In this document: positions 23,309-29,275 of the stretch, piece by piece
Layout of the letters: each line of letters opens with the position of its first letter
Numbering within the stretch: position 1 is the first letter of the stretch
Source: Clostridia bacterium
Lineage (GTDB): Bacteria; Bacillota; Clostridia; Christensenellales; SZUA-584
Length of the DNA stretch: 33,166 nt
Direction of reading: 5' to 3'
Assembly: GCA_018648645.1 (NCBI GenBank)
Contig: JABGQS010000025.1
Span: forward strand, 1-33,166
Translations under genes and position numbers: made by a program
Notes under the pieces: generated by a model
What the model saw: only the letters and a program-made list of their open reading frames with translations
Database searches by the model: none
Told to the model about the DNA's origin: nothing

Positions 23309-24757
23309 ATGAAAAAAAATAACGAACCGAACGAAATGGATAACAGCGCAAACTTGCCTGACGAGCTAAGCCAAGGCGAGCAAAATGCTCAGCCGATAGA
23401 TGAAGCTGCGCCTGTGCAGCAAAGTGCGCAGTACAGCGAACAAAACAACTATCCGCAATATCAGGCAGCTCCGGTGCAGTATTATCAGCAGACGAGCAAA
23501 AAGCCCGGGATAAGCACCGGGAAAAGGGTTTTAATAGCGCTCATGTTGGTGCTCGCTTTTATACTTGGCGGCGTCCTCACAGCTTTTGTGGTTATGCCTT
23601 TGATAGAGGCGGACTATTCCGATATCTTCTCAAATTGGCTGCCACAGGATAGGGCTGTCATCGAGGAAGCAGCGCCCGAAGATACAGAATCAGAAGACAC
23701 ATCGGGAGTCGCGATTACCTCGGATGAGGACGAGGCACAGCCTCCGCCGCAAACAACGAGCAGCGCAGACATCGGCGGAGAAAAACCAAACATCGACCAG
23801 GCAAGCAACCCGATTGTGCAGATTGCAGAGGAAGTCGGACCTGCAGTTGTTGGAGTCACGGTAAGCATAAACCAAGCAAACGGGGAGCAAAACGCAGTAA
23901 TAGACAGCGGATACGGCACAGGGTTCATCATCAGCGAAAACGGGTACATTGTGACGAACAACCACGTTGTGCAGGATAGCGATTCTGTACGTGTTACGCT
24001 CGTGGACGGAACAGAATATGAAGCGACGGTTGTCGGTACAGACGCGGCGAGCGACATTGCAGTAATCAAAATTGAAGCCACAGGGCTTACGGTTGCGGCG
24101 CTTGGTGACTCAGACGAATTAAGGGTGGGCGAAACTGTAGTTGCAATTGGCAACCCGCTTGGCACAAACCTCGCAGGCAGCGTTACATCCGGCATCGTCA
24201 GCGCGCTTAACCGCGTGATATCGACTGGCGGCTACAGCCAAAAATATGTACAGACAGATGCAGCTATCAACCCCGGCAACAGCGGAGGTCCGCTTCTCAA
24301 CATCGAGGGCGAAGTTATCGGCATCAACACGCTAAAGACGTATCTCGCGGGCTACGACGACTACGGCGTGCCCATCGGCACAGAAGGCATCGGCTTCGCA
24401 ATACCTGCAAGCACCGCTATTCCGATTATCGAGAAGCTGATGACGCAAGGATATGTAGAACGTCCGGGCATCGGTGTTTCGTGCCTTATTGATGTGACAA
24501 ACGCGTACAACGTGGAAGGCGCTCCCGACGGCGTTACTGTAGTCGAAGTTGTTAAAGGCGGACCGGCGGACGATGCCAACCTAATGGTAAACGATATCAT
24601 CATCGCTGTTGGCGGTGTAACCATCAACACGGTAGAGGAGCTGGTGGAGCAGATTCGAACTCACGCCATCGGCGAATTGGTAGAATTCACAATATGGCGA
24701 GACGGGGAAGAGCTTACACTGACAACAGTTATTGGCGATTTGAACAAAATGAACTAG
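23309..24757 (+). CDS. HtrA/DegP-like membrane-anchored serine protease
   Basis: 482 residues of the S1C family. It has a 70-residue cytoplasmic Gln/Pro/Glu-rich N-terminus, a membrane span at about 74-97, and an acidic extracellular linker. The trypsin-like domain carries the catalytic triad His219 (NNHVV), Asp249 (ASDIAVIKI) and Ser325 (NPGNSGGP). One PDZ domain (about 375-480, GVTVVEVVKGGPAD) follows. These proteases degrade or refold misfolded extracytoplasmic proteins and are often controlled by two-component systems. The ribosome site AAAGGAGAACGA fixes the start. It is the last gene of the operon, with a terminator directly after. Confidence 0.96.
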   Translation: MKKNNEPNEMDNSANLPDELSQGEQNAQPIDEAAPVQQSAQYSEQNNYPQYQAAPVQYYQQTSKKPGISTGKRVLIALMLVLAFILGGVLTAFVVMPLIEADYSDIFSNWLPQDRAVIEEAAPEDTESEDTSGVAITSDEDEAQPPPQTTSSADIGGEKPNIDQASNPIVQIAEEVGPAVVGVTVSINQANGEQNAVIDSGYGTGFIISENGYIVTNNHVVQDSDSVRVTLVDGTEYEATVVGTDAASDIAVIKIEATGLTVAALGDSDELRVGETVVAIGNPLGTNLAGSVTSGIVSALNRVISTGGYSQKYVQTDAAINPGNSGGPLLNIEGEVIGINTLKTYLAGYDDYGVPIGTEGIGFAIPASTAIPIIEKLMTQGYVERPGIGVSCLIDVTNAYNVEGAPDGVTVVEVVKGGPADDANLMVNDIIIAVGGVTINTVEELVEQIRTHAIGELVEFTIWRDGEELTLTTVIGDLNKMN

Positions 24758-27161: not shown

Positions 27162-28499
27162 ATGGATACTATCGTATACTCTGCACCCAAGAAAAGATAT
27201 TTAGGGCTCATTATCCCCTTCGCTATAGTGTTTGCATTGTTGATTGCGGCGTGTGTCTATTTTTATATTAGCTATACTAACTATAACGAAGCGCTGGCTA
27301 GCCTGGACATAGAGAAATATGAAGCGGACATTGAGCCAAGCGATGTTTGGGAAAACGAAATAGAGCTTTCAGGTAAAAGTATTCTCGAGCTAAACTGCGA
27401 ATTTGTTGAAAAGGCACTATACATTACTCCAAACGGATTGACGATACAAAGCCTTGCCGGTGAGTGGCGGAGCAATGACTTAACAAGAATATATGAGGAG
27501 CTCTTGAAAAACGAACACGGTGTCGAGCTAGATTACTTGGCAGAAATCGTTTTGAAACCAGGCGACTCCGTATACGGCGATTTTGCCGGCGAGTATTATG
27601 AGGAGAGCAAGACTTTATCGGCCTCGGTTGTGTTCAGTCCATTCATTGACAGCGTCTATATAAACTTTGCGACTTTGGATTACGGATACATCTACCTATA
27701 CAATATGAATGACTATGATGAAGTGCGGCAAGTTGCAAGCACGCTCTCTCACGAGTACGGGCATCACTATACCTTCTTCCATTTCTTTTCGGACGACAAT
27801 GAAAGAAGAGAGAATACAGAGTACTATGAGCTTAGAGGACTTAGCGAGTTCCCCGACGCGATTGAATATACCAGCTATGACGAATACTTAAAAATGCATG
27901 CGTGGGATATAAGTGAAATTGCTGCAGAGGACTATGTTCAATTCTTGGGCTCACCAACGAGCAAAGAGATTGGCGAGTACATGGACATAAAAGAAGCGCT
28001 GTATACAGCGGATATGGAGTTCGTGGGCAGCACGCAAACCTATCATTACAACGCATTCGCACAGGAAAACCCGGTCATACCTTTGGCCGAGCAGGTAGAA
28101 GGTTTGGAGGACTACTTCTATTCCTTCATCGATGAAGACTATGTTGAGCAATATACTGAGTATCCGCCTATTGTTATCGAAGCACAGAGAAAAAGGTCTC
28201 GCGGCAAGACTCATTATATACTCACCTGGAACGAGCTTGAGCTGCAAAGCGGCAGCGAAGTTATTTACACGGTAGTTTGTTATGATGCAGATGATGGAGA
28301 GATATACAGCGTTATAAAAACAATCTCCGGAGAAGAAGATTTGTCTGCGATTATTGGCACACCCACTCGAAAAAGGGGCAGTTGGATTTATTGGTGGAAC
28401 GATGGAACAATGGACGAGGACAGAATATTCCGCGTGCTCGCATACATCGTTGACGAGGGTATTGTAGTTGGCTCAGAGCCATATTACGCAGACTTCTAA
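27162..28499 (+). CDS. Membrane-anchored putative zinc metallopeptidase (HEYGH)
   Basis: 445 residues; I do not recognise the family. A short cytoplasmic head (MDTIVYSAPKKR) precedes one membrane span (about 14-36), so the bulk faces outward. Residues about 150-260 contain the zinc-peptidase motif HEYGH at 197-201. Upstream lies a hydrophobic strand (YGYIYLYNMN); downstream is an acidic stretch and the helix SEIAAEDYVQFLG (251-263), where Glu252 or Glu256 could be the third zinc ligand, a gluzincin-like plan. Residues about 335-445 look like a beta-sandwich (fibronectin III-like: PPIVIEAQRKR...YILTWNELE...YTVVCYDADDG). The ribosome site TTGGAGA has a long gap to the ATG. The gene ends 4 bases inside the convergent lipoprotein gene. 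Confidence 0.75.
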   Translation: MDTIVYSAPKKRYLGLIIPFAIVFALLIAACVYFYISYTNYNEALASLDIEKYEADIEPSDVWENEIELSGKSILELNCEFVEKALYITPNGLTIQSLAGEWRSNDLTRIYEELLKNEHGVELDYLAEIVLKPGDSVYGDFAGEYYEESKTLSASVVFSPFIDSVYINFATLDYGYIYLYNMNDYDEVRQVASTLSHEYGHHYTFFHFFSDDNERRENTEYYELRGLSEFPDAIEYTSYDEYLKMHAWDISEIAAEDYVQFLGSPTSKEIGEYMDIKEALYTADMEFVGSTQTYHYNAFAQENPVIPLAEQVEGLEDYFYSFIDEDYVEQYTEYPPIVIEAQRKRSRGKTHYILTWNELELQSGSEVIYTVVCYDADDGEIYSVIKTISGEEDLSAIIGTPTRKRGSWIYWWNDGTMDEDRIFRVLAYIVDEGIVVGSEPYYADF

Positions 28500-29275
28500 C
28501 CTTTGCGCCTCAACACAAAGAATATAATCAGGAACACGACTAGAGCAAGCGCTGCACCGCCGCCGCAGTATAGCAGTATTCGCCATATTTTATTTGTCGA
28601 GCTGGTTAGATTCTCGTGATATTCAACGTTTTCTTGATTAACTATTATTGAGTTTAGAGATATATCTTTCTCATCGCCATATTTTAGATTCCAAGTGGTA
28701 GTTGTAACGTTGTCGCTATACTCCTGCGAATCTGCGTTGGTGTCAACCGTCTCTCCCGGAAGAGAAATTGTCAGCGATAGTTCCGACTCGTTTGCATACA
28801 TGGTCAGAACTTCTTGCATATCCGTTGGTATCACAACGGGATCGCTTCTCCTGATTAAATCAACAAGCATTATTTTAGCATCAAAGTTATACTCATCTTC
28901 AAAAAACGATGAGGAATATTCAAATCCTGCGCTGACAAAAGGAGAGTATTCGCTCTTTAATATTGCGTCCAAGCTTTCATACGCTTCTTTCCTTGTGTCG
29001 TGCTGCTTCTCAAGGGTACCGCTGATGACGAGCAGAGTGGCGTTCTCGTTTACCTCCACCTGCAGACCTTGCAGCTCCAACTGCGCTGTTATAGCGTTTT
29101 TCAAATCGTAATAACTTGCATCCTCAAATTCCTCTATAGTCTTATCAATTTCGAGAGTATAGTTAACCTCTAAAGTGTTGTTTAGATCAAGCTTATATTC
29201 CATTGAAACTTTTGTGCATCCAACGAGAAAAGCAGCAACAAGCAGCAAAGCAATAAGTATAAGTAGTTTCTTCAA
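28496..29275 (-). CDS. LppM-like (DUF3153-type) lipoprotein with C-terminal membrane span
   Basis: 259 residues. The lipobox LVGC (Cys20) follows a typical signal, so the N-terminus is lipid-modified by Lgt. The mature part starts with MEYKLDLNNTLEVNYTLEID, the beta-strand opening seen in LppM/DUF3153 proteins. It is beta-rich and ends in a membrane span (about 230-255) with RRKG as a positive stop, so the protein is anchored at both ends. The start codon is TTG at 29275, supported by AGGGGAG five bases upstream; no better ATG exists. It converges on and overlaps by four bases the HEXXH protein gene. Function is unknown. Confidence 0.82.
   Translation of the reverse strand: MKKLLILIALLLVAAFLVGCTKVSMEYKLDLNNTLEVNYTLEIDKTIEEFEDASYYDLKNAITAQLELQGLQVEVNENATLLVISGTLEKQHDTRKEAYESLDAILKSEYSPFVSAGFEYSSSFFEDEYNFDAKIMLVDLIRRSDPVVIPTDMQEVLTMYANESELSLTISLPGETVDTNADSQEYSDNVTTTTWNLKYGDEKDISLNSIIVNQENVEYHENLTSSTNKIWRILLYCGGGAALALVVFLIIFFVLRRKG

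What the first reader, a model, noticed from the sequence alone, without database searches (positions are those of the whole stretch)
27162..29275. Convergent, overlapping pair: unknown outward-facing HEXXH protein and a doubly anchored LppM-like lipoprotein
The plus-strand protein has one N-terminal span, HEYGH at residues 197-201 and a downstream acidic helix suitable for a third zinc ligand, but no family I recognise. Its stop overlaps by four bases the stop of a lipoprotein gene that is also membrane-tied at the C-terminus. Two unfamiliar surface proteins in such close contact could be functional partners, for example protease and substrate or inhibitor, or the overlap could simply reflect compaction.
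Basis: partly seen in the sequence, partly recalled or inferred. Interest (0 to 1): 0.6.

Follow-up and report, generated by a model that had tools for sequence, protein, structure and literature searches.

The report
Unnamed surface metallopeptidase with dedicated lipoprotein
Two neighbouring genes encode a previously unnamed zinc-type peptidase anchored on the cell surface and a lipoprotein that travels with it in every close relative examined, so they very probably work as one unit, although what they cut or control is still unknown.

Summary
Window 27162-28499(+) encodes a 445-aa N-in/C-out membrane protein with HEYGH; 28496-29275(-) encodes a 259-aa lipoprotein with a C-terminal membrane span; the stops overlap by 4 nt. 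The doubt "partners or compaction" resolves towards partners. In 38 loci from diverse Clostridia and Erysipelotrichaceae the genes lie together (one with an inserted gene), codirectional or convergent. In 396 genomes of the order, the full-length lipoprotein occurs in exactly the 8 genomes with the full-length peptidase. Paired peptidases form one side of a branch (100/99), the lipoprotein tree largely mirrors it, and no other neighbour is in more than 7 of 38 loci. The peptidase domain (AlphaFold pLDDT 90.8) is unnamed in Pfam and NCBIfam but has a gluzincin-like fold, nearest the M34 lethal-factor domain (Z 10.2), then M30, M1, M9. Glu252 (82/83), not Glu256, is the likely third ligand. The C-terminal domain is FN3. 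The lipoprotein is a divergent LppM-type protein. Relatives outside the paired clade lack the lipoprotein and often carry SLH or Cu_amine_oxidN1 domains. Best reading: a two-part membrane-surface proteolytic unit. Whether the lipoprotein is regulator, adaptor or substrate is open.

The parts
27162..28499 (+). Membrane-anchored HEXXH peptidase, 445 aa (N-terminal span, stalk, gluzincin-like domain, C-terminal FN3 domain)
27204..27269 (+). N-terminal transmembrane anchor, about residues 15-36 (KKR on the cytoplasmic side)
   Evidence: sequence, hydropathy, helix 13-47
27411..28157 (+). Catalytic domain, residues 84-332, modelled alone at pLDDT 90.8 / pTM 0.88
27750..27764 (+). HEYGH zinc-binding motif, residues 197-201
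   Evidence: 81/83 relatives; lost only in two tandem copies in one genome
27915..27932 (+). EIAAED motif, residues 252-257: Glu252 the likely third zinc ligand, Asp257 invariant
   Evidence: E252 82/83, D257 83/83, E256 variable E/D/N/S
28152..28496 (+). C-terminal fibronectin type III-like domain, about residues 331-445
   Evidence: VIA-align Z about 9, 93 aligned, rmsd 2.4
28496..29275 (-). LppM-type lipoprotein, 259 aa, TTG start, Cys20 lipobox, C-terminal membrane span
28496..28499 (.). 4-nt overlap of the two stop codons

Best explanation
The two genes encode one membrane-surface unit. The plus-strand protein is an outward-facing zinc peptidase of a family unnamed in Pfam and NCBIfam with a gluzincin-like fold (His197, His201 and Glu252 as ligands, Glu198 as base: inferred), tethered by an N-terminal span and carrying an FN3 domain. 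The minus-strand protein is a doubly membrane-tethered LppM-type lipoprotein dedicated to it, most likely a non-catalytic subunit that binds the peptidase and controls its activity, substrate access or place at the membrane. Shown here: gene linkage, conserved motifs, predicted folds, topology. Inferred: zinc binding, catalysis, physical contact and the direction of control.
For: Side by side in 37 of 38 paired loci from many families, the 38th with one gene between. In 396 genomes of the order the full-length lipoprotein (E<1e-60) is in exactly the 8 genomes with the full-length peptidase. In 341 genomes of the class all 4 genomes with a strong lipoprotein match have the peptidase, and in the three newly found ones the genes are adjacent. 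The next commonest neighbour is in 7 of 38 loci. Paired peptidases are one side of a branch at 100/99 and the lipoprotein tree largely mirrors it; pairwise identities correlate at r=0.87. Adjacency survived one change of orientation, so it is not operon structure alone. Fold: pLDDT 90.8; nearest solved structures are zincins, led by gluzincins. Peptidases outside the clade have no lipoprotein and often SLH or Cu_amine_oxidN1 anchors, so membrane pairing may replace wall anchoring. One lipoprotein lies directly downstream of two active-site-dead copies, which fits a binding role.
Against: No physical contact tested (no complex prediction available). Trees that mirror each other also reflect shared species history. 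In six paired members the peptidase appears to have a cleavable signal peptide instead of an anchor, so co-tethering is not universal. The lipoprotein evolves much faster (mean identity 20% against 38%), which fits a substrate or a target under pressure as well as a subunit. Foldseek alone found no significant PDB match. The 80 loci kept are part of 149 found.
Confidence: 0.55

Rival explanations
1. Protease and substrate: the peptidase cleaves the neighbouring lipoprotein at the membrane surface, releasing or activating its LppM domain, as Pro-Pro endopeptidases cleave surface proteins encoded next to them.
For: [quoted passage not shown] PMC10413326). The M34 lethal-factor domain is the nearest solved fold. 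M. tuberculosis LppM is reported to have a dual localization (title of Barthe et al. 2016, cited in PMC6151718). The lipoprotein is fast-evolving.
Against: The juxtamembrane stalk (206-231) is the most variable part and holds no conserved motif. P0002 has no Pro-Pro site (sequence). One lipoprotein is adjacent to two dead peptidases.
Confidence: 0.25
2. Same pathway without contact: both act on the same envelope component (for example a lipid-linked or wall-associated protein), and the genes stay together through joint inheritance and joint transfer.
For: Scattered distribution (8 of 396 genomes of the order) suggests joint gain and loss; LppM of M. tuberculosis binds phosphatidyl-myo-inositol mannosides (PMC6151718), so an LppM domain can have a lipid ligand.
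Against: No third conserved neighbour that would mark a larger pathway.
Confidence: 0.15
3. Chance neighbours brought together by genome compaction.
For: The stops overlap by 4 nt in this window.
Against: Adjacency in 38 loci, two orientations, matched presence in 396 genomes.
Confidence: 0.02

Closest known systems
MEROPS M34 (anthrax lethal factor catalytic domain; Pro-Pro endopeptidases PPEP-1 to -4, placed in M34 from memory)
   Same: Zincin fold with HEXXH and a Glu third ligand on a downstream helix; VIA-align Z 10.2, rmsd 3.6, 154 of 249 residues. For PPEP-1/-2 the partner (substrate) is also encoded next door.
   Different: Only 16% identity; no member of the 83 matched the M34 Pfam profile at E<=0.1; membrane-tethered with an FN3 domain; partner is an LppM-type lipoprotein without a Pro-Pro site.
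MEROPS M30 (lugdulysin) and other gluzincins (M1 LTA4H, M9 collagenases)
   Same: Gluzincin fold, Z 8.0, 7.0 and 6.6.
   Different: Weaker match, no profile match, different domain architecture.
Pfam Peptidase_M43 (pappalysin, metzincin)
   Same: Sub-threshold profile match around HEXXH (E 0.002 for P0001; 16 of 83 members).
   Different: The metzincin motif HEXXHXXGXXH is in 0 of 83.
NCBIfam NF045830 MYPU_1760 HExxH metalloprotease (Mollicutes, from memory)
   Same: Weak profile match over the region up to HEXXH in several relatives, best E 1.1e-6.
   Different: 27.5 bits against a cut-off of 175; possible distant relative only; no match in the window's own genome.
LppM (Rv2171, PF21946) and DUF3153 (PF11353)
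   Same: Lipoprotein with an LppM domain; 13 of 38 paired lipoproteins match at E<=0.1 and three scanned individually pass the cut-off; P0002 20.4 bits, below the cut-off of 27.
   Different: Very divergent; dedicated to a peptidase gene. More distant LppM-type lipoproteins occur without the peptidase.

Membership tests
Gluzincin clan (HEXXH + Glu) | HEXXH helix | tested here: met
   HEYGH 81/83, in helix 188-207
Gluzincin clan (HEXXH + Glu) | Third ligand Glu on a downstream helix, close to the HEXXH histidines | tested here: inconclusive
   Conservation fits: Glu252 82/83, mostly 47-56 residues downstream, in helix 167-179 of the domain model; the one exception (Lys) has also lost HEXXH. The distance to the histidines could not be measured (coordinates not exposed)
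Gluzincin clan (HEXXH + Glu) | Zincin fold | tested here: met
   Best structural matches of the domain model are zincin peptidases led by gluzincins, Z up to 10.2
MEROPS M34 | Sequence-profile membership (Pfam ATLF) | tested here: not met
   No match in any of 83 members at E<=0.1
MEROPS M34 | Fold of the lethal-factor catalytic domain | tested here: met
   Z 10.2, rmsd 3.6, 154 aligned, 16% identity; also the fold of other gluzincins at lower Z
MEROPS M34 / PPEP | Pro-Pro cleavage | not testable with these tools
   Needs an enzyme assay
Peptidase_M43 (metzincin) | HEXXHXXGXXH | tested here: not met
   0 of 83
NF045830 MYPU_1760 metalloprotease | Score above the curated cut-off | tested here: not met
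   Best 27.5 bits against 175
LppM (PF21946) | Profile match above gathering score | tested here: inconclusive
   P0002 20.4 < 27 bits; homologues L025, L029 and L092 pass at 35.0, 45.6 and 31.1
LppM (PF21946) | Lipobox cysteine and C-terminal membrane span | tested here: met
   Cys in 37/37 with the region present, C-terminal span in all aligned rows. That this topology defines the family is from memory
LppM (PF21946) | Pseudo beta-barrel closed by a helix | not tested

The most novel reading that the evidence does not exclude
A two-component surface protease: a gluzincin family unnamed in Pfam and NCBIfam that swapped a cell-wall anchor for membrane tethering and an obligate LppM-type lipoprotein subunit that gates or targets it, with active-site-dead tandem copies retained as further subunits in at least one lineage.
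Probability: 0.35. Interest if true: 0.68.

Novelty: new variant of a known kind. Interest (0 to 1): 0.55.

Why it matters
The peptidase family is spread across Bacillota (149 relatives found in one scan) yet has no Pfam or NCBIfam name, and its relatives carry cell-wall anchors. The fixed partnership gives a concrete handle on function: a dedicated lipoprotein is either its regulator or its substrate, which a simple co-expression test can decide. It also suggests one possible role for LppM-type lipoproteins, which are poorly understood outside mycobacteria.

Tried and rejected
Single-sequence scan of genome contigs found nothing; the alignment-based scan worked. Foldseek with the full-length and domain models gave no significant PDB match; the full-length model only resolved the FN3 domain. 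Profile search of the PDB found no relative of the peptidase and only a weak LppM hit for the lipoprotein (2nc8, E 0.15). Metzincin (M43) reading rejected for lack of HEXXHXXGXXH. Glu256 as third ligand rejected because it varies (E/D/N/S). The idea that the FN3 domain is the interface specific to pairing was dropped because most unpaired relatives also match the FN3 profile. A larger gene cluster was looked for and not found. Phages: no match. Literature search found no paper naming HEYGH, MYPU_1760 or the LppM domain in this context; the library lacks most subscription papers. Promoter and terminator scans uninformative.

Full report
Observation. The peptidase starts at ATG 27162 and ends at 28499; the lipoprotein starts at TTG 29275 (AGGGGAG-like site upstream) and ends at 28496; the stops share four bases. 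Pfam and NCBIfam give only sub-threshold hits: M43 and metzin_BF0631 around HEXXH, LppM for the lipoprotein.

Relatives and linkage. The genome holds a second pair (G000:C6), convergent with the same 4-nt overlap, between miaB- and mutS-like genes (named from sequence, not scanned). Three genomes of the same family hold four more convergent pairs. G048, in another family of the order, holds codirectional pairs and a tandem array. An alignment-based scan found 149 relatives in Bacillota, of which 80 were kept. In the set of 83 loci examined for neighbours, 38 carry the lipoprotein: always on the peptidase's 3' side, codirectional or convergent; 37 directly adjacent, one (L035) with a 430-aa gene between. 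No other neighbour family is in more than 7 of these 38 loci. A few of these loci are the same genomic places fetched twice (for example L014 and L037), so the number of independent places is slightly lower.

Presence and absence. In 396 genomes of the order, full-length peptidase matches occur in 8 genomes (a ninth has a 53-residue partial match with a stop), and the lipoprotein at E<1e-60 occurs in exactly those 8; other lipoprotein hits are weak (E 8e-8 or worse) and mostly partial. In 341 genomes of the class, four have a strong lipoprotein match and all four have the peptidase; in the three new ones (G497, G586, G606) the genes are adjacent and convergent. The other six peptidase genomes of that sample lack a strong lipoprotein match.

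Trees. In a maximum-likelihood tree of the peptidase domain (83 rows), 39 paired and 44 unpaired members are the two sides of one branch, support 100/99. The lipoprotein tree puts P0002 next to the same five relatives as P0001, and one change of orientation suffices (92/93). Pairwise identities of the two proteins over 35 loci correlate at r=0.87; mean identity 38% against 20%. Part of this is shared species history.

Peptidase anatomy. N-terminal span, stalk, gluzincin-like domain, FN3 domain. The domain modelled with 83 sequences reached pLDDT 90.8 and pTM 0.88. Foldseek gave no significant match, but re-alignment of its candidates ranked the M34 lethal-factor catalytic domain first (Z 10.2, rmsd 3.6, 154 aligned, 16% identity), then M30 lugdulysin (8.0), M1 LTA4H (7.0) and M9 collagenase (6.6). 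His197, Glu198 and His201 are in 81 of 83, Glu252 in 82 of 83, Asp257 and Tyr258 in all; Glu256 varies. The deviants are two tandem copies in G048: one reads RAYGE, the other TAYGY with Glu252 changed to Lys. The metzincin motif is absent from all 83. The FN3 domain scores Z about 9.

Anchoring. Most paired members appear to have an uncleaved N-terminal span and HEXXH near residue 190; unpaired members appear to have cleavable signal peptides, with HEXXH near 130-150 in most. Of the unpaired representatives scanned, four carry SLH and two Cu_amine_oxidN1 domains. The six-member clade L023/L024/L025/L029/L035/L092 is paired but seems to have a cleavable signal peptide. These topology calls rest on hydropathy and reading by eye.

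Lipoprotein anatomy. Lipobox Cys in 37 of 37, C-terminal span with basic tail, most variable stretch in the stalk 206-231. Thirteen of 38 match LppM at E<=0.1 and L025, L029 and L092 pass the cut-off. More distant LppM-type lipoproteins occur elsewhere without this peptidase, two of them in genomes where none was found, so the paired ones are one branch of a wider group.

Mechanism. Adjacency kept through a change of orientation, matched presence, and mirrored trees argue for a functional unit. I favour a subunit role (regulator or adaptor) over substrate because no cleavage motif is conserved and one lipoprotein sits directly after two dead peptidases, but the PPEP precedent of protease next to substrate keeps the substrate reading alive at about one in four. 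Zinc binding, catalysis and contact are inferred, not shown.

Novelty. Fold and parts belong to known kinds; the peptidase family is unnamed in Pfam and NCBIfam, and I found no description of the obligate pairing in the papers that could be searched.

Noticed in passing
L013:7453-14548 (G048:C15; also L045): Tandem array peptidase-lipoprotein-peptidase-dead-dead-lipoprotein; the two dead copies read RAYGE and TAYGY in place of HEYGH, and the second also changed Glu252 to Lys.
   Followed up: partly
G001: Same genus as G003 and G004 (98% complete) but has neither gene, so the pair seems to be gained or lost as a unit.
   Followed up: no
L023, L024, L025, L029, L035, L092: Paired clade in which the peptidase appears to have a cleavable signal peptide instead of a membrane anchor.
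   Followed up: partly
L035:1790-3171: A 430-aa gene lies between peptidase and lipoprotein; its family also occurs as proteins of about 1170 aa upstream of the Bacillus-type relatives (L085, L086, L098).
   Followed up: no
window:30443-32884: Clostripain-family (Peptidase_C11) protein with a Gly/Ser-rich N-terminus and one membrane span, 1.2 kb from the lipoprotein start; with the trypsin-like PDZ protein at 23309-24757 this makes three surface-type peptidases within 10 kb.
   Followed up: partly
L013:17498-19147: Peptidase_M6-like HELGH protein close to the G048 array.
   Followed up: no
window:36-1742: Protein with Listeria-Bacteroides repeats (PF09479) and a membrane span near its C-terminus.
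   Followed up: no
L088:3114-6053: 979-aa relative with the HEXXH domain near residue 761 after a long N-terminal region without a Pfam match, and a Cu_amine_oxidN1 C-terminus.
   Followed up: no
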